Positions 1-27,973 of a stretch of 46,733 bases of DNA are shown here, one piece after another. A model generated the notes under the pieces. The model saw only the letters and a list, made by a program, of their open reading frames with translations, did no database searches and was not told the origin of the DNA. Position 1 is the first letter of the stretch. Each line of letters opens with the position of its first letter. A program made the translations under genes and the position numbers. The stretch is from an uncultured Paracoccaceae bacterium. GTDB lineage: Bacteria > Pseudomonadota > Alphaproteobacteria > Rhodobacterales > Rhodobacteraceae. Location: the NCBI GenBank assembly GCA_937995865.1, contig CALKJA010000198.1, positions 1 to 46,733 on the forward strand, in the 5' to 3' direction.

Positions 1-307
1 GCCCGGATTGGCAGTACCCGCATTGTGCCACTTGATGTGCAACCCATGCAGCCTGAACAGCGTGGAGAGTTTCTGGCGTGCCAAGGCCTTCGATCGTGGT
101 GATGTTTGCGCCTTCAAGATCGCCCACGGCCAACTGGCAGGATCGTTCCGCAACACCGTCAATATGAACAGTGCACGCCCCACATTGCGCAACGCCACAT
201 CCATATTTTGTACCAGTTAAGCCAAGCTCATCACGAAGCGCCCATAGGAGCGGCATTTGCGAATCAACGTCGACCTCCCGCTTTGCTCCATTCACAATCA
301 GTTGCAT
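1..307 (-). CDS. (2Fe-2S)-binding subunit of a molybdenum hydroxylase, IorA-like (partial, N-terminal 102 residues)
   Basis: The reading frame runs off the left edge of the window, so only the N-terminal part is seen. Residues 36-50 carry the plant-ferredoxin type cysteine cluster ([17 protein letters not shown]), followed by a fourth cysteine in the SCQLA segment. The start of the second cluster, QCGYCQSG, lies at the very edge. The QCGYCQSG form is typical of isoquinoline 1-oxidoreductase alpha subunits, whereas CO dehydrogenase small subunits usually read QCGFCTPG. Such subunits pass electrons from a molybdopterin large subunit, which would lie outside the window. The ATG start is the first in frame and has an AAAGAGC-like ribosome site. 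The gene is divergent from the AraC regulator, which may control it. The substrate cannot be told from this fragment. Confidence 0.88.
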
Positions 308-426: not shown

Positions 427-1428
427 ATGACAACCGCCCCAACACGATACAGACCCCGGAAATTCTTAGACTATGTCGCAACAGAGCTTGGCATGGCTGT
501 CCCGCAGTTGATGCTTGCCAGCGGTTTGCCGCGCCCGCTGTGTAGTGATCCCAATCCAACGCTAAGTGCGGCTCAGTTCTTTACCGTTTGGGAAACCGCA
601 GACAGGCTGGTTCCCGGCGGGATCACAGTGGATCAGGCGCGAATGGCTGTGAGGCGCTCCATTTCTCCGCAAACTTACGCCTTTTCCGCCAGCCCCAACG
701 TTCAAACCGGGTTTGAAAGGCTGGCAATTTTCAAACCTCTTACGGGACCCATCGCACTTTATCTAAGCCGGGACGCAGATACCCTTAAGATCACGGTGGA
801 CAGCCCCGATCCGACTGCGCCTTTCCCCGCGCGGATCTATGGCGTTGAGATTGTCCACCTGATTGAACTCATGCGCATGGCAACGCTGCATCGGATTGTC
901 CCTTTGGCGGTGTCTTTTCCATCCACAAATGACAGGTTGGATGATGTCAGCGCGTTTGCGGGATGCAAAGTTGATGTCGGGGTGGAATTGTCGATTACCC
1001 TATCCGCCGAAGACGCGGACCGCCCACTTCATTCCGCCAACAAGGATCAGTGGGAGGCATTTGAACCGCTGTTGCGTGGGGAACTGGCGGCGCTCAATCG
1101 CTGCCAAACCCATGCGGATCGGACCCGCGCTGCCCTGTTTGAGCTGATGCCCGCCGGGCGGGCTTCGATTGAAGATGTTGCCGCGCGGTTGGGGCTATCC
1201 AAACGGTCCCTACAACGGCATTTGAGCCAAGAATCCAGTAGCTTTGGCACGGTGCTTCAATCCGTACGTCAGGATTTGGCAACGCATTACCTTACCGAAG
1301 ATGACCTGCGGATCGAAGAGATTTCACATCTTCTTGCGTTTCGGGATCCAAACAGCTTTTACCGCGCATTCCAAAGCTGGACCGGCATGACCCCCAAAAG
1401 CGCCCGCGCCGCAAGCCGACGGTCTTGA
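427..1428 (+). CDS. AraC family transcriptional regulator
   Basis: A 333-residue DNA-binding regulator of the AraC class with an N-terminal arabinose-binding-like domain (about residues 15-200) of the type found in OruR/ArgR-like activators. The C-terminal double helix-turn-helix (about 230-330) is visible from LGLSKRSLQRHL in the first HTH and the AFRDPNSFYRAFQSWTGMTP signature in the second. GAGGAAACGCG lies directly upstream of the ATG and supports this start. The gene is divergent from the molybdenum-hydroxylase subunit and convergent with the FAD/GcvT oxidase, 20 bases away. Regulators of this type often activate a neighbouring catabolic gene, so the hydroxylase operon is the likeliest target; this is inference from position. 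Confidence 0.9.
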   Translation: MTTAPTRYRPRKFLDYVATELGMAVPQLMLASGLPRPLCSDPNPTLSAAQFFTVWETADRLVPGGITVDQARMAVRRSISPQTYAFSASPNVQTGFERLAIFKPLTGPIALYLSRDADTLKITVDSPDPTAPFPARIYGVEIVHLIELMRMATLHRIVPLAVSFPSTNDRLDDVSAFAGCKVDVGVELSITLSAEDADRPLHSANKDQWEAFEPLLRGELAALNRCQTHADRTRAALFELMPAGRASIEDVAARLGLSKRSLQRHLSQESSSFGTVLQSVRQDLATHYLTEDDLRIEEISHLLAFRDPNSFYRAFQSWTGMTPKSARAASRRS

Positions 1429-1448
1429 AGCGCGGCGCAGGATGGCGA

Positions 1449-3857
1449 TCAGCCGCGCGGCAACGTCATTTGTGGATCGAACGGCGGCTCAGAAAGCGGT
1501 GTGATCGCATAAGACACGCCACATATATCCACGGTCATTTCGCCATCCAAGTCCGGGTCCACAAAGGCAATCGCAAGGTTCTTATCCACGCGATACCCCC
1601 ACGCGCCGCTGGTCACTGTGCCAACAACCCGCCCGCCATGCTCAACAGATGCTCCGGGATGCGCGGGATGCGTGTCGCAAGAAACCTCCATCAGCATCAT
1701 CTTACGGGATGGCCCGTTTTTCTGACGCGCCTCCAAGGCGTCTTTGCCAATGAAATCCTTGGTCATCGTAACAAAGCGATCCAAGCCGGTCTCAAAGGGA
1801 TCAAATTCGGTGATTAGATCCGCTTTCCAGTGGAAGAACCCTTTTTCCAAACGCATCGATTCCACCAAACGCGCACCAAAAGGCGCCATGCCATAAGGCT
1901 CACCTGATTGGTTCAACACCTTGTAGGCAGCATAGAGTGACGGCATGGGAACATGGATCTCATATGCCAGCTCACCCGAAAAGCTCACGGCCATCACAGT
2001 GGCGGGTGCATAGCCAATGTTTGCTTCACGCACAGACAACCATGGGAACGCGGCTTTGCTCCAATCCCCACGGGATGCCGCACTAAGAATGTCTCGTGCT
2101 TTTGGGCCTGCGAGCAAAAGGATGCCATGCGTATCCGTCAAAAGGCGCATTTGCACGTCTTCGCCATCGCCGATATGGGCCGCAAGCCAATCCCAATCAT
2201 GACGGGTCGAGGCCGCAGCTGAGCCATACCAAACACGTCCGCCGGGCAGGCGCGCGATCGTAGCCTCGCCCTTAACCATGCCATGATGATTGAGAAGATA
2301 CCCCAAACCAACGCGGCCTTCTTTCTTGGGCACCCGCCCACAGATCATCCGGTCAAGGAATGTGTCCACATCTGCACCCGTCAGCTCAATGCGGTTAAAC
2401 CCGTTGACCTCAGCAATACCCGCCCCCGCGCTAAGCGTGGTTTGGGCCTCTTTCATAAGTGCGTGCACTTCTGAAAAGCCAAATGTGTGAGATTCCTCAA
2501 AATCTGCGGAGGGCTTAAAGTAGTCAACCCGCTCCCAGCCATCAACCACGGTAAACTCTGCGCCTTGGGCCTCCCAAATCGGCGTAAGCGGCGTGGTTTT
2601 CGCGTCCCGCCCGGCGGGGCGCTGCTCGTGCGGGAAATGGAACCGGAATTCGTTTTGGTAGTCTTCGATCGCCTTCAGCGCGGTCAGCTCCTGATTGGCA
2701 TGATTACCAAAGCGGCGTGGATCGATAACCCATGTGTCATAGCACGCTTCGCCATGTACGATTTGCTGCGCCAAAAGCCAGCCGTGACCCCCGCCTTCGC
2801 CCACACCCGCGCGCAGACCAATGATGCAAAACGCGTTGCGCTTTCCAGGGATCGGACCAACCAACGGTGCGCCGTCAATGGTATAGGTGATCGGACCATT
2901 TACGATGTTCTTGATGCCGACCTCCATCAGCGCAGGCATCCGCTCAAACGCACCTTCGAGCACGTCAGTAATTCGATCCAGATCATCTGGACACAGGTCA
3001 TTAGCAAATTTCGGATCGATGCCGTCCATGCCCCATGTCCGGCAGCCCTGCTCATAGAAGCCGATTAGAAGCCCGTTCTTCTCTTGGCGGGAGTAATAGT
3101 CAGAGATCGGGCAGCGCAGGAGCGGCATACGGTGGCCGGCTTCTATGATGCCGGGGATGTCCTCGGTGACGAAATACTGGTGCTCCATTGACGCGACGGG
3201 GTGCTCCACACCCATCATCGCACCCACCTCGTTCACACGGTATCCGCAGGCGTTGACCACAATCTCGGCATGGACTGTGCCTTTGGGTGTCTCCACCATC
3301 CAGCTGTCATCTTTGAGTTGGGTAAGCGATGTGACCGGCGTGTAGCGATGCACCTCAGCGCCCGCCAAACGCGCCCGCCGCGCAAGCGCCTGACACAGCT
3401 GAGCCGGGTCGATATCCCCGTCCTGTCCGTCCCAAAGACCACCCACCAGATTGTCAGTGCTGATCAGAGGGTGCCGCCGTTTGCACTCGGTAGCATCAAT
3501 GACTTCAAACTCTACACCCATACCCCGCGCCATTGAGGCAAAATGCCGATACGCTTCCATCTGTGCGTCTGTATTAGCCAGCCGGATACCTCCGTCACCG
3601 TGGTGATACCCCACGGGATAGTCGGGATCATCGCGCAGCTCTTTGTACAGCTTGATGGAGTGGCTCTTAAGGCCGACCATCGTCTGGCCCATCCCAAAAT
3701 TCGTCACCTGCGCGGCCGAATGCCATGTTGTTCCGCTGGTTAACTCGTCGCGCTCCAGCAACATGACATCGCTGCATCCTTCCTGTGTGAGATGGTAAAG
3801 GGTGGAACATCCGGCGATGCCGCCGCCGATAACAACAACCTTGGCTGATTTGCGCAT
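1449..3857 (-). CDS. FAD-dependent oxidoreductase with GcvT domain (dimethylglycine/sarcosine dehydrogenase family)
   Basis: An 802-residue two-domain enzyme of the dimethylglycine dehydrogenase/sarcosine oxidase type. The N-terminal DAO domain (about 1-390) has the Rossmann dinucleotide motif VVVIGGGIAG near residue 11 and an acidic residue after the second strand (LLERDE). The C-terminal part (about 430-800) is an aminomethyltransferase (GcvT) domain, with the ARLVESMRLEKGF and MTLPRG elements typical of the group. His46 in TTWHSAA occupies the place of the covalent flavin histidine of mammalian dimethylglycine dehydrogenase. Family members oxidise N-methyl groups and pass the formaldehyde equivalent to tetrahydrofolate. 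AAGGAGG lies 8 bases before the ATG. Next to a LysR regulator and an MttB-family gene, this suggests stepwise demethylation of a methylated amine; the exact substrate is not known. Confidence 0.87.
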   Translation of the reverse strand: MRKSAKVVVIGGGIAGCSTLYHLTQEGCSDVMLLERDELTSGTTWHSAAQVTNFGMGQTMVGLKSHSIKLYKELRDDPDYPVGYHHGDGGIRLANTDAQMEAYRHFASMARGMGVEFEVIDATECKRRHPLISTDNLVGGLWDGQDGDIDPAQLCQALARRARLAGAEVHRYTPVTSLTQLKDDSWMVETPKGTVHAEIVVNACGYRVNEVGAMMGVEHPVASMEHQYFVTEDIPGIIEAGHRMPLLRCPISDYYSRQEKNGLLIGFYEQGCRTWGMDGIDPKFANDLCPDDLDRITDVLEGAFERMPALMEVGIKNIVNGPITYTIDGAPLVGPIPGKRNAFCIIGLRAGVGEGGGHGWLLAQQIVHGEACYDTWVIDPRRFGNHANQELTALKAIEDYQNEFRFHFPHEQRPAGRDAKTTPLTPIWEAQGAEFTVVDGWERVDYFKPSADFEESHTFGFSEVHALMKEAQTTLSAGAGIAEVNGFNRIELTGADVDTFLDRMICGRVPKKEGRVGLGYLLNHHGMVKGEATIARLPGGRVWYGSAAASTRHDWDWLAAHIGDGEDVQMRLLTDTHGILLLAGPKARDILSAASRGDWSKAAFPWLSVREANIGYAPATVMAVSFSGELAYEIHVPMPSLYAAYKVLNQSGEPYGMAPFGARLVESMRLEKGFFHWKADLITEFDPFETGLDRFVTMTKDFIGKDALEARQKNGPSRKMMLMEVSCDTHPAHPGASVEHGGRVVGTVTSGAWGYRVDKNLAIAFVDPDLDGEMTVDICGVSYAITPLSEPPFDPQMTLPRG

Positions 3858-18892: not shown

Positions 18893-19519
18893 TCAAATTA
18901 GCAACACTTGCGCGCCATTGCCGACCATCCCGTAAAGCTCTTCGATATGGCTATTATACAGGCCAATGCACCCATTCGAAGAGCGGCGTCCGATCTTGCG
19001 CGTGTCATGCGTGCCGTGGATCCGGTAATAGGTCCAGCTCAGATAGAGCGCATGCGATCCAAGTGGGTTGTCTGGGCCAGGACCGACAAAGGCGGGCCAT
19101 TCTGGATTCCGTTTAAGCATCGACGGCGTTGGGCGCCATGACGGGCCTTCAACCTTTCGGATAACGCTGGTGCGTCCGCGGCGGGTTAGATCCTCGCTCA
19201 GCGGTACGGAAGTTGGGTAAAGTTTGTAGACACTCTGATCCTCAGACCAATAGTGCAAAGCGCGGCTATTGATATCAACAAGGATCGCCCCATTGCGTGT
19301 GTTCTTAAAGTAAGGCCGCCAATCAAGCGTGCGGAAGCTTGAGATGTTGCGCCGCGTTCCTTTGTAAAGATCGGCCTCAAACTCTGTCGTGTCGCCCGGT
19401 AGCGTCGATTGTGCGAATGCGGGTGCTGCCAAAAGTGCGGTTGTACCAGCCAGAAAGCTCCGGCGGGCCAGCTTGCTGCGGTCAGATTTTTCCATGCTCA
19501 TCGTGTTTTTCTTTCTCAT
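18893..19519 (-). CDS. L,D-transpeptidase (YkuD domain), Tat-exported
   Basis: A 208-residue periplasmic enzyme that would cross-link peptidoglycan stems or attach proteins to them. The signal contains twin arginines (LARRSFLAGTTALLAAPAFAQ). The YkuD catalytic site is complete: YRIHGTHDTRKIG followed by RSSNGCIGLYN with the nucleophile cysteine near the C-terminus. The start is uncertain: ATGs at 19534, 19519 and 19501 are all in frame and none has an ideal ribosome site. The signal sequence would be intact from each. A second enzyme of this class lies 2.2 kb away. Confidence 0.9.
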   Translation of the reverse strand: MRKKNTMSMEKSDRSKLARRSFLAGTTALLAAPAFAQSTLPGDTTEFEADLYKGTRRNISSFRTLDWRPYFKNTRNGAILVDINSRALHYWSEDQSVYKLYPTSVPLSEDLTRRGRTSVIRKVEGPSWRPTPSMLKRNPEWPAFVGPGPDNPLGSHALYLSWTYYRIHGTHDTRKIGRRSSNGCIGLYNSHIEELYGMVGNGAQVLLI

Positions 19520-19664
19520 GACCCTCGATTCCATAAACTTATGGCGCGAAAGTCGCAGTCGCAAATCAAACCAGCGTTATGTTGCCAGCTTACGCAAATG
19601 TGGGTTTGATAGGTCGCACCTGAAGCTTAGTGATAGGTCAAACAATATCTGTACGGGTAGTAAT

Positions 19665-20211: not shown

Positions 20212-21714
20212 ATGCTGCAGATGATCAAAACGGGTTTCCGTCATTTCTTTCTATTCATCTCGGTTGTTGCTGTATCATTGCTATTGTCAGCCCCTGCTGA
20301 ATCGCAACCGCGGCTGACAACAGACGGGCCCTTGGTTCTGTTTATCCGCGACATCGGACCTAGCGAACGCACAGAAATTCACTGTCCCGTGGCCAACGGA
20401 CTTTGCCAAATGGTCGATACCAATGGCGACGCGCTTACCCCGGCTATGTTCAACGGCGGCTCCGGCTTTCGCGCAACGCGCCAAGAGGCGCTCGTAAAGA
20501 TCGGCAGTAAATACGGGATGCTAAGGCGTGACGGGTCATGGACCATCGCGCCTGTCTTCGAGCGCATCCGCCACTTTCCTGAAAACGAGATCGCGCGTGC
20601 CTATGTTGATGGGAAGTGGGGCTTTGTTGATCGTTCTCCCCGCTGGGTTATCCCGCCACAGTTCGAATATGCCGATGCGTTCTCGGATGGGCTGGCCAAA
20701 GTGAAACGCAACAACAAATCTGGCTTTATCAATGCACGGGGTGAAGCCATCATCCCGATCAAGTACGACACGATCTATCCAAAGGTTTTCACGCATGGTC
20801 TCGTGCCTGCATCGCTAGATGGGAAGTACGGATATTTGGACAAACGCGGGCGCTGGGTCATTGCGCCAACCTATGAGTTCACCGATGAATTCGCCACCAA
20901 CGGTCTGGCGCTGGCCGAAAAAGACGGCAAATATGGATATATCGATATCAATGGTAATTGGGCCATACCAAATCGCTTTGATAACGCGAGTGGCTTTTCC
21001 CCAAACGGTCTCGCACGGGCAAAATCTGGCTCTAAATACGGCTTTATCGACAGCACAGGGCACTTTGCGATCCCAGCGAAATTTGATGCCGCCATAAGCT
21101 TTGGCAATGATACCCTCACTGGCGTGCGGATTGGTGACAAATTCACCGTCATTGACCAATCTGGTCACGAGCGTTTTGCCCCGCGCGACTACAAGATCAT
21201 TTTTGGCTACGGCAACAGCCGCTTCGCCAAGTTCGAACAGAACAGTCGGTATGGCCTTATTGACCGGCGCGGCAATGTCATTGTGCCGGCCATATACCGG
21301 GGTCTCGCGCGCCGCGGTGACAACTTCAAAGTTACCTATGGGCCAGACGGGAGCAGCGCTGGCTTGATAAACGCCAACGGCACCCCGCTCACATTCTCGA
21401 AATCCGATTTCCAACTTGCCGAGATGCAGGCGATCCAAGCGGATCAATCCAATGATCTTCAGACCGCCAAGGCCGAAATCGCCCGCCTTCAGGCCGAATT
21501 GAACCGCGCCAAGCAAACGCCACAGCGATCCAGCGCGTGCGATCACGTGTATCAAGGCCTGCGTTTCGACGGCAAAGAACGGCTGGCCGGTTTGATCTCA
21601 ATCGGGGTCACGTATGAGGTGCTTGGCTTTTCCCCAATCACAGAAAGCGTGACAGTGCGCAGCCTGAATGGCGGCAACTCCTACAATATCCATTGCAGTC
21701 AAGTGTCACGCTAG
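20212..21714 (+). CDS. WG-repeat exported protein with C-terminal coiled coil
   Basis: A 500-residue protein. The first about 32 residues are a Sec signal (hydrophobic FFLFISVVAVSLLLSAPAES). Residues about 90-385 form seven or so WG repeats of roughly 35-40 residues, seen as GKWGFVDRS, NKSGFINARG, GKYGYLDKRG, GKYGYIDING, SKYGFIDSTG and SRYGLIDRRG, each followed by a W/A/VIP strand. A short coiled coil follows (TAKAEIARLQAELNRAK, about 420-436), then a C-terminal domain with two cysteines that could pair. WG repeats are thought to mediate protein contacts on the cell surface or in the periplasm. ATG at 20221 is an alternative start. It ends 9 bases from a convergent L,D-transpeptidase gene. 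Confidence 0.87.
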   Translation: MLQMIKTGFRHFFLFISVVAVSLLLSAPAESQPRLTTDGPLVLFIRDIGPSERTEIHCPVANGLCQMVDTNGDALTPAMFNGGSGFRATRQEALVKIGSKYGMLRRDGSWTIAPVFERIRHFPENEIARAYVDGKWGFVDRSPRWVIPPQFEYADAFSDGLAKVKRNNKSGFINARGEAIIPIKYDTIYPKVFTHGLVPASLDGKYGYLDKRGRWVIAPTYEFTDEFATNGLALAEKDGKYGYIDINGNWAIPNRFDNASGFSPNGLARAKSGSKYGFIDSTGHFAIPAKFDAAISFGNDTLTGVRIGDKFTVIDQSGHERFAPRDYKIIFGYGNSRFAKFEQNSRYGLIDRRGNVIVPAIYRGLARRGDNFKVTYGPDGSSAGLINANGTPLTFSKSDFQLAEMQAIQADQSNDLQTAKAEIARLQAELNRAKQTPQRSSACDHVYQGLRFDGKERLAGLISIGVTYEVLGFSPITESVTVRSLNGGNSYNIHCSQVSR

Positions 21715-21723
21715 GCGCGCGGA

Positions 21724-22227
21724 TTAGGGTTTAATCTCAATCGGTGTGCCGATCTTTACCATCGCATAGATATCTTCCATCTCGCGATTGGTCACAGCAA
21801 GACAGCCCCATGTCCAATCATCGGTCCTGCGGAACTTGCGCGGCGTGCCGTGGATAAAGATATCACCGCCCGGACTTTTGCCCAGCGCTGCAGCTTTGGC
21901 GCGGTCGGCGTTATTTGGATAATCGATGCCGATGGACAAATAGAACGCCGAGTTTGGGTTCTTGCGGTTAATCCGATACTTGCCCTCGGGCGTTTTTCCG
22001 TCGCCCTCGATATCCTTGTCACCCACAGGCGTGAAGCCCAGCTCAAAATCATAGCTCTCAAGGATTTCATCCTTGTGGAAAAGCACGAGCTTACGCTTTT
22101 CTTTGAACGCCATGATGTATGTGACCTCTGGCCCATCATAGGTTCGGAATTTCTGTGCACACCCGCTCAACACCAAGACCGCTGAGACGAGAAGTAAAGC
22201 CGTGACTGCCCGCATGTTTTTTCTCAT
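21724..22227 (-). CDS. L,D-transpeptidase family lipoprotein (YafK-like)
   Basis: A 167-residue lipoprotein. Residues 1-24 are a signal with the lipobox LSGC. The catalytic domain contains DIEGDGKTPEGKYRINRKNP, typical of the ErfK/YafK branch, then IFIHGTPRKF and DWTWGCLAVTN with the nucleophile cysteine. YafK of E. coli removes Braun lipoprotein from peptidoglycan, so hydrolase activity is possible as well as cross-linking. A TTG five codons upstream is an alternative start, but ATG is preferred. Its upstream gap from the channel gene contains a hairpin. Confidence 0.9.
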   Translation of the reverse strand: MRKNMRAVTALLLVSAVLVLSGCAQKFRTYDGPEVTYIMAFKEKRKLVLFHKDEILESYDFELGFTPVGDKDIEGDGKTPEGKYRINRKNPNSAFYLSIGIDYPNNADRAKAAALGKSPGGDIFIHGTPRKFRRTDDWTWGCLAVTNREMEDIYAMVKIGTPIEIKP

Positions 22228-22267
22228 TTTTGTTTGCGCCAAACACTAACTCAAAGGGCGCTGCACC

Positions 22268-22292: not shown

Positions 22293-23069
22293 CTATTTTT
22301 TCTCGCGGACCTGCGAAAGCTCCGTTTCGATCGCTTTAAGACGGTCTAGCACTTCTTCACGATAGGTATCTGTGGCCTCGTTCGCCTCGGCGGCGTGAGC
22401 ATCCTGCATAGAGTTTACGATCAGACCCACAAGCAGGTTAACCACCGCGAATGTTGTGACCATGATAAAGGGCACAAAGAACGCCCACGCATATGGGAAC
22501 TCCGCCATTACTGGGCGCACGATCCCCATCGACCAGCTTTCCAGCGTCATGATCTGGAACAGTGAGTACAGCGAAAGACCCAGCGTTCCAAACCATTCTG
22601 GAAAGGCTTCGGCAAACAGCTTGGTCGCCATCACCGCACCGATGTAAAACATCATTCCCATCAACAGGAATACAGACCCCATACCGGGCAGCGCGCTGAC
22701 AAACCCTTCGACAACGCGCCGCAGGGTAGGTGCCGTCGAGATAAGACGCAGCACGCGCAAGATCCGCAAGGCACGCAGAACAGACAGCGCTTCGGACGCT
22801 GGCATCAGAGCGATACCCACAACAAGGAAATCAAAGATGTTCCAACCACTGCGGAAAAAACGGAAGCGGTAGGCGATGAATTTGAGCAGGATTTCGATCA
22901 CAAAGATTGCAAGGCACAGTGAATCGAGAACGTTAATCAGCCCGCCGATGTAAGATTTTACCGTTTCCGAGGTATCGAGCCCCAGCAGGATCGCGTTGAA
23001 CACGATCACACCCATGATGAAATTGCCCACAGAGGGCTTCTCTAGCCAGTTTTGTAATGATTGTTGCAC
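22293..23069 (-). CDS. Bacterial voltage-gated sodium channel (NavBac family)
   Basis: A 258-residue six-helix ion channel that forms a tetramer in the inner membrane. With the GTG start used here the voltage-sensor arginines fall at 99, 102, 105 and 108 (VLRALRILRVLRLIS) and the selectivity filter TLESWSM at 175-181, the same numbering as I recall for NavAb of Aliarcobacter butzleri. The pore helices S5-S6 (VFLLMGMMFYIGAVMATKLF and FFVPFIMVTTFAVVNLLVGL) and a C-terminal coiled coil (about 225-256) are present. The open frame extends upstream into the RNA methyltransferase gene, but GTG lies four bases after that stop with GGCGGGA eight bases before it. It is the last gene of a tightly packed run. 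Confidence 0.93.
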   Translation of the reverse strand: MQQSLQNWLEKPSVGNFIMGVIVFNAILLGLDTSETVKSYIGGLINVLDSLCLAIFVIEILLKFIAYRFRFFRSGWNIFDFLVVGIALMPASEALSVLRALRILRVLRLISTAPTLRRVVEGFVSALPGMGSVFLLMGMMFYIGAVMATKLFAEAFPEWFGTLGLSLYSLFQIMTLESWSMGIVRPVMAEFPYAWAFFVPFIMVTTFAVVNLLVGLIVNSMQDAHAAEANEATDTYREEVLDRLKAIETELSQVREKK

Positions 23070-23073
23070 GCGC

Positions 23074-24288
23074 TTAATCCCGCCTGAAATCCACAATACA
23101 CTCCACATGCGCGGCCCAACGGAATTGGTCAACCAAATGTAGTGCACCCATCCTGTATCCCCCGGCGCGCAAAATCGCCGCATCGCGTGCGAAAGTGGCA
23201 GGGTTACAGGACACTGCCGCGATAACAGGCACATCGCTTTCAGCAAGCGCACGCATTTGCGCATCGGCCCCAGCGCGGGGTGGATCAATCACCACTGCAT
23301 CAAGCTTTTGCAGATCCTTGGGATCCAACGGATTGCGGAATAGATCACGTTTCACCGCGCGAAACCCGTGCATATCAGGTGCACGGCGCCACGAAAGATC
23401 CGCCGCAGCGACCGCTGCCGCGTCGGATTCGTATAGCACCACTTCAGCCCGTGTGGCGAGCGGCAGAGCAAAAGTGCCAACCCCGCCGAACAGGTCCGCA
23501 ATCTGTGCGGCCCCGTCTGTAATTTTCAATACCCGCCGAAGCAGCGCCGCTTGTCCATGGGCGGTGGCCTGAAGAAACGCTGCGGGCGGTGGAAAGGCAG
23601 GCACCGTGCCAAATTGCACGGACGGGGCGGTTTCTTCTGCAATCACCTCGTTGTCATAAACGGTGCGGATAACGCCGACATCGCGCGCCCAGCCCGCCAG
23701 CGCGGCCAGTTCTGTTGGATCAAGAGGTTTGACCCCTTCGATACAGAGCTCCAACCCATTGTCACAGGCTGTTACGTAATACCCTACCTCACCCTTGCGC
23801 GATCCGATGTTCGCTGTCAGCCCCTCAAGCGCAGGGATAAGCGCGGCGATCTCGGGTAAAAGAACATGACAGGACGACGCATCCGTCACCACATGTGCGG
23901 CGCGGCCATGAAAGCCAACCGTTGCGCCCGATTTGGTGCGCTTACCGGCCAGCTTGGCCCGACGGCGGCTTTGCGGTGGGGATGTTTCGATGCCCGCAAT
24001 CTCAGCTTCGATCCCCTGAGCGGCAAAGGCATGCCGCACCACCTCAACCTTCCAACCCGAAACAAAATCGTCTGACGCGTGCTGAAGCGCGCAGCCACCA
24101 CAGGCGTTATAGGCTGGGCAAGGCGGCTTGATCCGGTCGCCCGAGGGTTCCACGATCTTGATCTGGCTAAGCTGCTGCCCGTCCAAGGTTCCGCGTACAA
24201 TTTCGCCGGGCAAAGTCCGCGCCGCATATACCGGCCCTACGGCGACGCCATCCGCACGCACGCTTAGTTTTTCAATCGTATGAGTCAC
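23074..24288 (-). CDS. Class I SAM-dependent RNA methyltransferase with Fe-S cluster (RlmD/TrmA family)
   Basis: A 404-residue 5-methyluridine RNA methyltransferase. The N-terminal 45 residues resemble a short TRAM domain (RADGVAVGPV). Cysteines 57, 63, 66 (CPAYNACGGC) and 140 match the 4Fe-4S ligands of RlmD-type enzymes. SAM motif I is IADLFGGVGTFALPL, and the catalytic cysteine is Cys361 in AVSCNPATFARD. The target may be a uridine of 23S rRNA, but the exact site cannot be told. The start is GTG: its bases overlap the TGA of the ABC exporter gene (GTGA), a four-base overlap. The channel gene follows closely. Confidence 0.92.
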   Translation of the reverse strand: MTHTIEKLSVRADGVAVGPVYAARTLPGEIVRGTLDGQQLSQIKIVEPSGDRIKPPCPAYNACGGCALQHASDDFVSGWKVEVVRHAFAAQGIEAEIAGIETSPPQSRRRAKLAGKRTKSGATVGFHGRAAHVVTDASSCHVLLPEIAALIPALEGLTANIGSRKGEVGYYVTACDNGLELCIEGVKPLDPTELAALAGWARDVGVIRTVYDNEVIAEETAPSVQFGTVPAFPPPAAFLQATAHGQAALLRRVLKITDGAAQIADLFGGVGTFALPLATRAEVVLYESDAAAVAAADLSWRRAPDMHGFRAVKRDLFRNPLDPKDLQKLDAVVIDPPRAGADAQMRALAESDVPVIAAVSCNPATFARDAAILRAGGYRMGALHLVDQFRWAAHVECIVDFRRD

Positions 24289-26129
24289 TCAGCTGCCTCG
24301 TTAAAGGTGATAAATCCGCCGGACTGGCGTTTCCAATAGCGCGCATACAAACCGTCTTGTGCCAAAAGATCGGCATGGGCACCCTCTTCGACGATCCGCC
24401 CCGCGTCCATAACAACGATCCGGTCCATGTTGGAGAGAGTCGAAAGCCGGTGCGCAATGGCAAGAACGGTTTTGCCATCCATGACTGTCTCTAACGCATC
24501 TTGAATCTGCGCTTCTACCTCAGAATCCAACGCGCTTGTTGCTTCGTCCAACACAAGGATCGGCGCGTTTTTTAGGATCGCACGCGCCAACGCAATCCGT
24601 TGCCGTTGCCCGCCAGATAACTTAACGCCGCGCTCACCCAGATGAGCATCATACCCTTTGCGACCCATATGATCAGTAAGATCTTTGATGAACGTATGTG
24701 CCTTGGCGGCACGGGCAGCTGCGATGACCTCATCTTCGGTCGCGTCCGGGCGGCCATAACGGATGTTGTCCCATGCTGATCGGTTAAACATCGCCGTTTC
24801 TTGTGTGACCATGCCAACATGCTGGCGTGCGGTTTCCTGTTTGAGATCCTGTAGATCTTGCCCGTCCATCGAAACACGCCCAGATTCAGGATCATAAAGC
24901 CGAAGCATCAACCCAACGAGTGTGGATTTCCCGGCCCCCGAAGCGCCAACCAGCCCAACCTTTTCGCCCGGAGCCAGCGTAAGCGTGACATTGTGGATAC
25001 CGTTGCGCTGAGAGCCGTAAGTATATGTCAGGTTTTCAAAAGCCACTTCGCCTTTGCGAAACTCGAACGCCACTGCATCTGATCGGTCCGTAACAGTAGG
25101 GCGCGGTGTCAGGGTGCGCATGCCATCCTCAACCTCGCCGATATTCGAATAGATCGCCATAAGCGTAAAACTCACCCAGCCAGTCATTTGTGCCAACCGG
25201 ATCGAAACTGATCCAGCGGCCGCAATTTCACCCACCGTTGCAGACCCCGCCTGCCACAACAGAACCGCGCCACCGATCAGCATCAAAGGAAGAATCCCGG
25301 CCACACCCATCAACGCAAAGCGAAAGGCCGAAGAAATCGCGCCATAGTCGAGCATCTGAAGCCGCAAGGTCTCCATCGCGTCCAGCGCAACGCTGTCCTC
25401 GTGCTGCGAATTGGCGAAGAGTTTGACTGTTTTGATGTTGGTGATCGTATCCACCAACTGCCCGCCCAGCATCGCCCGCGCCGACGCCCGGCTTTTGGAT
25501 TTGGCGCGGAGCCGTGGCATGAACCATGAGATCATCCAAAGATAAATTGCGAGCCAAACCAGCATCACCGCCGCCAGCCGCCAATCAAGGGACAGCATAA
25601 GCACCATCGATCCAGTGACCGAGGCGATCGCGAAGAACCCCACATTGATCACCTCAACGATCACATTGGTCAGCGCGTTGGTGGTCTGACCCTGCTTAGA
25701 AGCAATTCTGCCGGCAAAATCATTGTCAAAGAACTCAACCGGCTGGGTGAGCGTCCAACGGTGAAGCCGGGCCGTGATCTTCGTCGCCACTTGCGGCGCA
25801 ACAACCAGCCCTTGCCATGTTGCAGACAAACCAAAGATCAGAGGGCGGAAACCGATGAAAAAGAGGACAAAGCCCAACAGAAGCGGCCAATTGCGCGCGA
25901 AGTATCCTGCTGGATCTGCGGATGCAGAATCGACAACCTGACCAAGCAAATAGGCTGTGATCACCTCGGTAGTGCCTGCAAGACACGAGATCGCGGCTGC
26001 CAGCACCAGCATCGGCCACGCACCACGCACCGACCAACGGAAGAACGCAAACAATGTTTGCGGTGGTGGTCCTTCGGCGCGCTGGAATGGGTCAATCAGA
26101 TTGCCCAAAATCTCAATCAATTTTGTCAT
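24285..26129 (-). CDS. ABC exporter, fused membrane and ATPase domains (second subunit of a pair)
   Basis: A 614-residue half-transporter of the MsbA/MdlB type. Six hydrophobic helices occupy about 35-330. The ATPase domain has Walker A VGASGAGKST near 390, signature LSGGQRQRIALARA, Walker B ILVLDEATSALD and the switch AIAHRLSTL. All catalytic residues are present, so both sites of a heterodimer could hydrolyse ATP. It overlaps the preceding exporter gene by four bases (ATGA) and is close to it in size and sequence, which points to a heterodimer. Substrate unknown; drugs, lipids and peptides are typical of the class. Confidence 0.93.
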   Translation of the reverse strand: MTKLIEILGNLIDPFQRAEGPPPQTLFAFFRWSVRGAWPMLVLAAAISCLAGTTEVITAYLLGQVVDSASADPAGYFARNWPLLLGFVLFFIGFRPLIFGLSATWQGLVVAPQVATKITARLHRWTLTQPVEFFDNDFAGRIASKQGQTTNALTNVIVEVINVGFFAIASVTGSMVLMLSLDWRLAAVMLVWLAIYLWMISWFMPRLRAKSKSRASARAMLGGQLVDTITNIKTVKLFANSQHEDSVALDAMETLRLQMLDYGAISSAFRFALMGVAGILPLMLIGGAVLLWQAGSATVGEIAAAGSVSIRLAQMTGWVSFTLMAIYSNIGEVEDGMRTLTPRPTVTDRSDAVAFEFRKGEVAFENLTYTYGSQRNGIHNVTLTLAPGEKVGLVGASGAGKSTLVGLMLRLYDPESGRVSMDGQDLQDLKQETARQHVGMVTQETAMFNRSAWDNIRYGRPDATEDEVIAAARAAKAHTFIKDLTDHMGRKGYDAHLGERGVKLSGGQRQRIALARAILKNAPILVLDEATSALDSEVEAQIQDALETVMDGKTVLAIAHRLSTLSNMDRIVVMDAGRIVEEGAHADLLAQDGLYARYWKRQSGGFITFNEAAE

Positions 26130-27973
26130 GCGGGTGTTGTCTCATCCAAGTTCAAGAACCCGCCGGACTGCCGCGCCCAAAAGGCTGCGTATTGCCCGCC
26201 CAGCGCCAATAGCTCTGCGTGGGTGCCATCTTCAACAATCCGACCTGCATCCATCACCAAAATGCGATCCATTTGCGCAATTGTGGAAAGACGGTGCGCA
26301 ATCGCGATCACCGTTTTGCCGTCCATCATGCCGGTAAGCGTTTGCTGAATGGCGGCTTCAACCTCGGAATCCAGTGCGCTTGTTGCTTCGTCCAGAATGA
26401 GGATTGGCGCGTTCTTGAGAATGACCCGCGCCAACGCAATCCGCTGCCGCTGACCGCCGGACAACTTCACGCCGCGTTCGCCTACATGCGCGTCATAGCC
26501 GGTACGGCCTTCGGGATCTCTGAGTTCGGGGATGAAGTCATCTGCTGCCGCTTGAGCAGCAGCTTGAGCAATCTGGGCATCAGATGCACCCGGACCGCCA
26601 TATAGAATATTGTCGCGAACCGAACGGTGCAGCAACGCGTTGTCTTGCTGAACCATTCCAATCTGATGTCTTAGCGAATTTTGCGTAACTTTGGTAATGT
26701 CTTGGCCATCAATCAGGATTTGCCCGTTTTCAGCATCGTAAAACCGCAAAAGAAGCTTAACGAGGGTCGATTTCCCTGCGCCAGAGCGGCCCACCAACCC
26801 AACCTTCTGGCCTGGTTCAATGACAAGGTCGATATTATCAAGCCCGCCATGATCGCGACCATAATGGTGGCTGAGTGATACAGCTTCGATCCGACCTTCG
26901 CTTAGATCAAGCGCACGTGCGCCTTCCGTATCGATCAGCTCGATCGGCTGGGCGATCGTTTCCATCCCCTCTTTGATGATCCCAAGGTTCTGAAAGAACG
27001 AAGACATAGCCCACATAATCCAGCCGGTCATAGAGTTGAGCCGCAACACCAGCGCCGAGGCCGAAGCGACAACGCCCACCGTTGCCGCCTCTGCGGACCA
27101 AAGCCACAACCCCCAGCCCAAAACTGAAATAATCAGCAATCCGTTCAAGAAGACCAACATCACATTCATACACGTGAAAATCCGCATCTCTTTTTGAAAT
27201 GTCCGTCGGGCGCCTTCGATGGCGTCCTTGGCATAGTCTTCTTCTAATGCGTGGTGCGAGAACATCTTGACCGAATGGATATTGGTGTAGCTGTCCACTA
27301 CACGGCCCGTGACAACGCTGCGCGCGTCCGAAGAGGCCTTGGAGGCCGCGCCCACACGCTGCACCATCCACCGCACTAAGAAACCATACAGCACCAACCA
27401 TAGCAGCAAAGGCAGCATAAGCCGCGGGTCAGCCGCGCTCATCAAGAAGATCGCGCCCACAAAATAGGCCATTGAAAAGCTCAGCGCGTCAAACACCTGA
27501 AACACCGCTTCACCTGCGGCTGGGGGTGTCTGCATGATCCGGTTGGCGATACGCCCGGCAAAATCATCTTCGAACCAACCCACCGATTGCCGCAATACAT
27601 GACGATGCGCGCGCCATCGAAACACCGTTCCAACATTTGGCATGATCGAGTTGTTAAGTAGCAGAACCTGAATCGCCATCATCGCGGGCCGCACCAACAG
27701 GATAAAGAGCGTTACCAGAACCAGCTCAAACCCGTGAAGCCCCCAGAAATCGCGCGCAGAGACTGTGCTCAGAACATCAATCAGCCGTCCAAGGTACCAA
27801 ATCAGCCAAAGCTCAATCGACGCCACGATCATCGACATCACACCAGTCAGCGCAAATACCCGTTTGAAGCTGTTCAAATAGCTCCACAGGAACGGCCACA
27901 GCGCTTGCGGCGGCCGGTCTTGCGCGGGGTAAGGCGCATAGGGATCATTGAGGGACTCAAAGAAGCGAAACAC
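26126..27973 (-). CDS. ABC exporter, fused membrane and ATPase domains (first subunit of a pair)
   Basis: A 615-residue half-transporter. The membrane domain (about 30-330) is followed by the ATPase domain with Walker A GRSGAGKST at 395-403, signature LSGGQRQRIALARV, Walker B ILILDEATSALD and switch AIAHRLSTI. It starts with GTG: GAGG lies seven bases upstream, and no nearer ATG fits the family N-terminus (FRFFESLNDPYAP). It lies 43 bases after the LysE-type exporter gene. Together with the next gene it probably forms a heterodimeric exporter in the inner membrane. Confidence 0.93.
   Translation of the reverse strand: MFRFFESLNDPYAPYPAQDRPPQALWPFLWSYLNSFKRVFALTGVMSMIVASIELWLIWYLGRLIDVLSTVSARDFWGLHGFELVLVTLFILLVRPAMMAIQVLLLNNSIMPNVGTVFRWRAHRHVLRQSVGWFEDDFAGRIANRIMQTPPAAGEAVFQVFDALSFSMAYFVGAIFLMSAADPRLMLPLLLWLVLYGFLVRWMVQRVGAASKASSDARSVVTGRVVDSYTNIHSVKMFSHHALEEDYAKDAIEGARRTFQKEMRIFTCMNVMLVFLNGLLIISVLGWGLWLWSAEAATVGVVASASALVLRLNSMTGWIMWAMSSFFQNLGIIKEGMETIAQPIELIDTEGARALDLSEGRIEAVSLSHHYGRDHGGLDNIDLVIEPGQKVGLVGRSGAGKSTLVKLLLRFYDAENGQILIDGQDITKVTQNSLRHQIGMVQQDNALLHRSVRDNILYGGPGASDAQIAQAAAQAAADDFIPELRDPEGRTGYDAHVGERGVKLSGGQRQRIALARVILKNAPILILDEATSALDSEVEAAIQQTLTGMMDGKTVIAIAHRLSTIAQMDRILVMDAGRIVEDGTHAELLALGGQYAAFWARQSGGFLNLDETTPA

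What the first reader, a model, noticed from the sequence alone, without database searches (positions are those of the whole stretch)
22293..23069. NavAb-like sodium channel numbered residue for residue when started at GTG
With GTG as start, the four S4 arginines (99, 102, 105, 108) and the TLESWSM filter (175-181) take the positions recalled for NavAb. This is strong support for the start and suggests a functional voltage-gated channel. Its place behind an rRNA methyltransferase and an ABC exporter pair is not an obvious functional link.
Basis: partly seen in the sequence, partly recalled or inferred. Interest (0 to 1): 0.55.

Follow-up and report, generated by a model that had tools for sequence, protein, structure and literature searches.

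The report
Bacterial sodium channel; sister in T6SS
The window encodes an ordinary bacterial voltage-gated sodium channel, a relative of channels already studied, but the same genome carries a second such channel inside the gene cluster of a bacterial "harpoon" weapon (type VI secretion), an arrangement seen again in related bacteria.

Summary
Minus strand 23069-22293 encodes 258 aa from GTG; R99/102/105/108 and TLESWSM 175-181 are present, and NavAb aligns gap-free with residues 6-235. It is an intact BacNav, about 52% identical to NavMs and 48% to NavAb; 194 of 295 family genomes have a match. Equal numbering is weak evidence for the start: 21 of 100 relatives share it; the nearest relative's ATG at the same codon is better. 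The methyltransferase lies directly upstream in 50 of 80 named loci, but 29 of 80 carry the channel elsewhere. Motility is unlikely: fliF has no match in this genome or its congener.

Outside the window, the genome's second Nav lies in a type VI secretion cluster behind tssH. The 29 top-ranked family matches of this type all lie beside T6SS genes; they form one clade and track T6SS core proteins. Fourteen of 43 clusters of this T6SS type show no Nav, so it is not essential. My searches listed no paper on it. Window gene: new member of a known kind; the T6SS clade is the novel part.

The parts
22293..23069 (-). BacNav voltage-gated sodium channel, 258 aa from GTG (stop codon included)
   Evidence: (PF00520 E 2.7e-42)
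22527..22547 (-). selectivity filter TLESWSM (residues 175-181)
   Evidence: identical in 102 of 102 distinct proteins
22746..22775 (-). S4 stretch from R99 to R108 with R99, R102, R105, R108
   Evidence: the four arginines conserved in 102 of 102
23074..24288 (-). TrmA/RlmD-type RNA (uracil-5-)methyltransferase; its stop ends 4 nt before the Nav GTG
   Evidence: PF05958, 46 bits; best model RlmD PRK13168, 190 bits, below its cut-off of 458
24285..26129 (-). ABC exporter half; overlaps the methyltransferase ORF by 4 nt
26126..27973 (-). ABC exporter half; overlaps the next ABC ORF by 4 nt
21724..22242 (-). YkuD-domain protein downstream of Nav; also hit downstream in 43 of the 50 methyltransferase-context loci
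   Evidence: PF03734; LdtF/DpaA/YafK model, 56 bits, below its cut-off of 365

Best explanation
The gene encodes one subunit of a homotetrameric voltage-gated Na+ channel of the bacterial Nav (BacNav) family. S1-S4 with four arginines sense the membrane voltage; on depolarisation S4 moves and S6 opens; the TLESWSM filter passes Na+ into the cell; a helical C-terminal tail probably holds the tetramer together. It follows a same-strand run ABC-ABC-methyltransferase and starts at the GTG 4 nt behind the methyltransferase stop. Shown here: sequence family, filter, arginines, conservation, gene order. Inferred: tetramer, gating, Na+ selectivity, co-translation. In this host, which shows no fliF, the likely task is Na+ entry on depolarisation for ion and voltage homeostasis rather than motility (inference, weak). 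A second, separate Nav clade in the same genome is tied to a type VI secretion cluster.
For: Gap-free alignment with NavAb over 230 residues and best hits to NavMs; 51.6% identity to NavMs (a mutant chain), 47.8% to NavAb over the compared stretches. Pfam Ion_trans. In 102 distinct proteins the filter TLESWSM, R99/R102/R105/R108, D49, E59 and D80 never vary. A model from 17 aligned sequences matches NavAb/NavMs structures, best E 4.7e-15. 194 of 295 family genomes have a match at E<=1e-10, four of them distant. Start: ATG at the same codon in the nearest relative.
Against: No current was measured. The model is a monomer of moderate confidence (pLDDT 69, pTM 0.45). N-terminal length varies among relatives (proteins of 254-280 aa), so the exact start could be off by a few codons; no Shine-Dalgarno test was run. 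The physiological role is not shown; 101 of 295 family genomes have no match at E<=1e-10.
Confidence: 0.9

Rival explanations
1. The channel serves flagellar motility and chemotaxis, as reported for NaVBP of an alkaliphilic Bacillus (Ito et al. 2004, title seen in a reference list only).
For: Precedent: the reference title seen.
Against: fliF has no match in G000 (87% complete) nor in its congener G230 (99% complete). Over 295 genomes, Nav other than the T6SS type (176 genomes; 14 without one and 4 with only distant matches set as negative) and fliF are independent: 129 both, 47 Nav only, 86 fliF only, 33 neither, Fisher p 0.89 (not corrected for kinship). One flagellar gene only was tested.
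Confidence: 0.05
2. The channel works together with the ABC exporter pair and the methyltransferase as one functional unit.
For: Methyltransferase directly upstream in 50 of 80 named loci, an ABC hit before it in 49 of the 50; spacing -4 to 35 nt in 45 loci.
Against: 29 of 80 loci have the channel behind an epimerase/SDR-like gene, 27 of the 30 non-methyltransferase loci with dxs and 27 with ispA on the other side (families checked on one example each), and one of 80 has neither. RNA methylation and ABC export suggest no shared substrate (inference).
Confidence: 0.1
3. It is a Ca2+ or non-selective channel rather than Na+-selective.
For: The same fold family includes CavAb and CavMr (title of PMC7041947); human Cav3 channels match.
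Against: Filter identical to NavAb/NavMs TLESWSM in 102 of 102 proteins; the filters of CavAb and CavMr are recalled to differ.
Confidence: 0.05
4. For the second Nav (outside the window): it is a cargo, an injected effector of the T6SS, and not a resident of the attacker's own membrane.
For: It lies next to a slot with variable ORFs, one family of which has alpha-pore-forming proteins (MakA, Nhe) as best PDB matches (E about 6e-4), and upstream of tssCL/vgrG. A T6SS effector that forms ion-selective, voltage-sensitive channels is described (Tse4, PMC12169545, listing and start of abstract only).
Against: The channel is constant while the neighbouring ORFs vary or are missing (12 of 31 loci have none); its distances track TssH and TssF; six-span tetrameric channels seem unlikely spike cargo (inference). 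Immunity genes were not searched for.
Confidence: 0.15

Closest known systems
NavMs (PDB 5hvx, 6sx5)
   Same: Best solved match, E 5e-80, 51.6% identity, same filter and S4 arginines
   Different: NavMs has a one-residue insertion near window residue 70; tails diverge
NavAb (PDB 3rvy, 5yua)
   Same: Gap-free over window 6-235, same filter, same four S4 arginines, 47.8% identity
   Different: Residue 49 is D here and in 102 of 102 proteins, while NavAb mutants titled N49K show N there. No alignment beyond about residue 235
NavSp1 (Silicibacter/Ruegeria pomeroyi) and NavRosD (Roseobacter denitrificans)
   Same: Roseobacter-group BacNavs with published electrophysiology (PMC6363421, PMC7125111, PMC4493117: listings; PMC5071848: passages). 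Probably orthologues: the Ruegeria loci fetched lie in the methyltransferase context
   Different: Their sequences were not compared here. 7pgf_C ('Ion transporter', pore piece, E 1.1e-61) is recalled to derive from Sp1
Roseobacter group-3 T6SS with TssCL (PMC9515649; section 12 read, passages)
   Same: Same cluster type in which the second Nav sits
   Different: The paper describes TssCL; the terms ion transporter, ion channel and sodium occur 0 times in its main text

Membership tests
BacNav (bacterial voltage-gated Na+ channel) | single six-helix Ion_trans domain | tested here: met
   PF00520 over 15-226, E 2.7e-42; model matches NavAb/NavMs
BacNav (bacterial voltage-gated Na+ channel) | selectivity filter T-L-E-S-W-S-M | tested here: met
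   residues 175-181; same letters in NavAb and NavMs
BacNav (bacterial voltage-gated Na+ channel) | S4 arginine at every third position and countercharges in S2/S3 | tested here: met
   R99, R102, R105, R108; D49, E59, D80 in 102 of 102; the role of the acidic residues is recalled
BacNav (bacterial voltage-gated Na+ channel) | C-terminal helical bundle | tested here: inconclusive
   Model shows one helix 192-257 (S6 plus tail), pLDDT 56-79 per block, monomer only
BacNav (bacterial voltage-gated Na+ channel) | homotetramer with voltage-dependent Na+ current | not testable with these tools
   needs expression and patch clamp
CavMr/CavAb-type Ca2+ channels | filter that differs from TLESWSM (recalled) | tested here: not met
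   filter is TLESWSM
T6SS-embedded Nav clade (described here) | gene lies beside T6SS genes, behind tssH, and falls in the T6 clade | tested here: not met
   The window gene is behind the methyltransferase and outside the T6 clade. The genome's other Nav, G000:C21:763-1656, is behind tssH and inside the clade

The most novel reading that the evidence does not exclude
A distinct clade of voltage-gated sodium channels is a dedicated part of the roseobacter-type T6SS. Boldest form: it sits in the attacker's inner membrane and turns depolarisation (for example from an incoming pore-forming attack) into a Na+ signal that sets T6SS assembly or firing, next to the kinase, phosphatase and FHA genes of the same cluster. 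The window gene would be the housekeeping sister against which this use can be told apart. The tie to the T6SS locus is shown by gene order and shared history; the sensor role is inference.
Probability: 0.5. Interest if true: 0.8.

Novelty: new member of a known kind. Interest (0 to 1): 0.5.

Why it matters
The window gene alone adds one more member of a well-studied channel family. What it leads to matters more. Outside an alkaliphilic Bacillus, what bacterial Nav channels do for their owners is largely unsettled (my reading of the field). Here a clade of them lies inside a T6SS cluster in 29 sampled family genomes and shares the history of its core genes, which names a concrete process in which to test a bacterial Nav: contact-dependent competition. 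It also offers a contrast within one genome: the same filter and gating charges in two gene contexts, with 14 near-fixed differences between the two types, gate-region residue 217 among them.

Tried and rejected
Motility link: tested by fliF only; no association, and no fliF match in the host. Numbering as proof of the start: not a family rule. Operon partners as a functional unit: kept as a low rival, since 29 of 80 loci have another context; these do not form one clade in a single FastTree (MRCA holds 96 of 101 tips, support 0.90), so I draw no history from it. T6SS Nav outside the family: 19 class-level loci (L249-L267, two of them from the same family) showed no T6SS protein within their flanks of about 1.5 kb; a weak negative, as the flanks are short.

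Results against the T6SS reading. Of 43 roseobacter-type clusters, 14 show no Nav (one of these cut by a contig end just after tssH); of the 38 where tssH to vgrG was seen (L149 lacks tssH on its contig but is counted), 22 have Nav and TssCL, 3 Nav only, 4 TssCL only, 9 neither (p 0.0006; not corrected for kinship). One of the three 'Nav only' loci (L172) has a TssB-like hit behind Nav, so may hold part of TssCL. Five roseobacter-type clusters cut by contig ends were dropped from that table (4 with Nav, 1 without). Roseobacter type was set by TssH identity of 68% or more to Leisingera TssH; of the 31 other places none has a Nav hit, but several are on short contigs. The 29 T6SS Navs were taken by rank; from rank 30 on (G203: 56% to this query, 64% to the window protein) places were not read with wide surroundings, except near the ClpV genes.

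Slot proteins: Pfam and NCBIfam gave nothing at E<=0.01 for the own genome's three and only weak scattered Pfam hits for five others. Profile A1 gave MakA and Nhe chains at E 6e-4 to 7e-4; A2 gave long-helix and coiled-coil chains (best E 2.5e-5); A3 gave weak unrelated hits. The pore-former reading thus covers one of three multi-member slot families and is marginal.

Full report
The observation. The finding gives no strand; the gene is on the minus strand, 23069 down to 22293, and reads 258 codons from GTG. Counting GTG as 1, arginines are at 99, 102, 105 and 108 and TLESWSM at 175-181. The printed alignment with NavAb (5yua_A) has no gap from query residue 6 to 235, and 6juh_A matches 6-235 to 6-235.

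What the protein is. Pfam gives Ion_trans at E 2.7e-42. The best solved structures by sequence are NavMs (E 5e-80), then NavAb; identity is 51.6% to NavMs (a mutant chain) and 47.8% to NavAb over the compared stretches. A model from 17 aligned sequences reached only pLDDT 69 and pTM 0.45, but its best matches in the PDB are NavAb and NavMs, best E 4.7e-15. In 102 distinct proteins (the window, its paralogue, 29 loci from family genomes and 80 named loci, nine duplicates dropped) the filter, the four arginines, D49, E59 and D80 never vary. It is an intact, constrained BacNav. One difference from NavAb: residue 49 is D; NavAb mutants titled N49K show N there.

The start. Of 100 relatives, with starts predicted by my rule (nearest ATG), 21 have the aligned residues at 99 and 177; 57 have R99 at 101. 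About one relative in five would show the match, so it says little. Better reasons to accept GTG: the nearest relative (L033, Shimia ponticola, 79% identical) has ATG at exactly this codon, two bases after the stop of its methyltransferase gene; in the window the distance is four bases; and in the 45 of 50 loci where I placed both ends (the five others are duplicates) the distance runs from -4 to 35. A start a few codons away cannot be excluded.

The neighbourhood. In 50 of 80 named loci (the 80 best of 334 confirmed relatives) the methyltransferase lies directly upstream; an ABC-exporter hit precedes it in 49 of these (the other is cut by the contig), and in 43 the YkuD protein follows the channel. 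In 29 of 80 the channel instead follows an epimerase/SDR-like gene, and 27 loci have dxs and 27 have ispA on the other side (one example of each checked by Pfam); one of 80 has neither. So the order is conserved, but the channel does without it elsewhere.

Motility. fliF gives no candidate in this genome (87% complete) or in its congener G230 (99% complete), while 215 of 295 family genomes have a match. Across the 295, a Nav other than the T6SS type (176 genomes; 14 genomes without one and 4 with only distant matches set as negative) is independent of fliF: 129/47/86/33, p 0.89 (no correction for kinship, one flagellar gene). Motility is not a good guess for this host.

Leaving the window: the second channel. 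The same genome has another Nav, 51-55% identical, at G000:C21:763-1656. Before it on its strand lie TssF, TssG and TssH (TssH 1251 bits against a cut-off of 885), then three ORFs without a Pfam or NCBIfam match, then Nav, then a TssB-like stretch at the contig end. A search with this protein over the same 295 genomes gave a top group of 29 genomes, this one included (the other 28 at 55-80% identity); from rank 30 on the matches are closer to the window's type or unclear. I read the surroundings of all 29: all 29 have T6SS genes beside the channel, 28 with tssH upstream on the same stretch; in the other (L149) the contig begins just before the channel, and TssCL, vgrG and more follow. Three annotated plasmids, of 22 plasmid records at 60-80% identity, show a large cluster: tssA-B-C, hcp, tagJ, tssE-F-G-H, hypothetical, 'ion transporter', TssC-like, vgrG, hypothetical, PAAR, tagH, tssK, icmH/tssL, tssM, tagF, PP2C, with a serine/threonine kinase beside it. 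One of them (Qingshengfaniella) has the length of the contig behind L165 and is probably the same replicon.

How tight the tie is. TssH scores over its cut-off in 73 of 295 genomes, 74 places. Twenty-nine are the genomes above. The 45 places in the other 44 genomes (L204-L248) have no Nav hit at E<=1e-4 in the stretches read. By TssH identity the 74 divide into 43 of the roseobacter type, 29 of them with Nav, and 31 others, none with Nav. Fourteen roseobacter-type clusters lack it (one of them cut just after tssH), so the channel is not needed for every such T6SS. Where the interval up to vgrG is seen (38 clusters), Nav goes with the fused sheath protein TssCL: 22 both, 3 Nav only, 4 TssCL only, 9 neither (p 0.0006, uncorrected). 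In 12 of 31 loci Nav follows tssH with no ORF of 90 aa or more between, at 39 to 307 bases. The 32 T6SS Navs (29 genomes and three plasmids, one probably double) form one clade with nothing else in it, support 0.98, in one FastTree. Their pairwise distances correlate with TssH at 0.81 and with TssF at 0.83, as TssH does with TssF (0.825), in 28 genomes. In the 15 genomes with both types, the T6SS Nav correlates with TssH at 0.825 and TssF at 0.869, TssH with TssF at 0.855, but the T6SS Nav with the other Nav only at 0.615. It thus shares its history with the T6SS more than with its sister. Fourteen of the 29 genomes have no Nav of the window's type; two of these (G137, G272) have a further, more distant Nav match. 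Filter and four arginines are unchanged in all 32; 14 positions are near-fixed differently from the window type, among them 217 (I/V against L), 220, 225 and 236.

What is known. The roseobacter T6SS paper that describes TssCL (PMC9515649; section 12 read, passages) has no occurrence of ion transporter, ion channel or sodium in its main text. PMC11556119 (whole text) names no channel; in PMC4337385 (passages) the terms ion transport, sodium channel and ion channel occur 0 times. Searches that pair type VI secretion with sodium-channel terms (25 of 86, 20 of 269 and 15 of 75 papers listed) showed no paper on this; the nearest is Tse4 (PMC12169545, listing only), an injected toxin that forms voltage-sensitive channels. 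The library is open-access papers; an unread paper may have it.

Mechanism of the second channel, inferred. It keeps what is needed to sense voltage and pass Na+, it is constant where the neighbouring ORFs change, and the three annotated clusters carry a kinase, a PP2C phosphatase and an FHA protein, the parts of threonine-phosphorylation control of T6SS (recalled). One of three multi-member neighbouring ORF families has MakA and Nhe, alpha-helical pore-formers, as its best PDB matches at E 6e-4, which is marginal. I think a resident sensor or ion-balance channel of the T6SS-bearing cell more likely than an injected cargo, but neither is shown.

Verdict. The window gene: an ordinary, probably functional BacNav, new member of a known kind. 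The trail from it: a T6SS-bound Nav clade that seems undescribed and is testable, the reason for the score.

Noticed in passing
L112 (G000:C21) 763-1656, minus strand: Second Nav channel of the same genome behind tssF-tssG-tssH and three unknown ORFs; the 29 top-ranked family matches of this type all lie beside T6SS genes.
   Followed up: yes
L143:18675-19922 and relatives (alignment A1): ORF between tssH and the T6SS Nav whose family profile has MakA and Nhe pore-forming chains as best PDB matches (E about 6e-4); other clusters have different ORFs or none in the slot.
   Followed up: partly
L032, L038, L040 and 26 other named loci: A second conserved context of the window-type Nav: behind an epimerase/SDR-like gene, mostly with dxs and ispA converging.
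   Followed up: partly
window 20212-21714, + strand: WG-repeat protein between the CAP-domain and YkuD genes; no match in the 80 named loci at E<=1e-8, so possibly a lineage-specific insertion.
   Followed up: no
G477:C71:46967-48690, G570:C53:7167-8905, G647:C29:30427-32141: Two Nav-like genes in tandem in three genomes of one other alphaproteobacterial genus.
   Followed up: no
L206, L210, L215, L219: Four roseobacter-type T6SS clusters with TssCL but no Nav hit; natural comparison strains.
   Followed up: no
window 18893-19564 and 21724-22242, minus strand: Two YkuD-domain proteins on either side of a CAP-domain protein next to the Nav, an order seen in many methyltransferase-context loci.
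   Followed up: no
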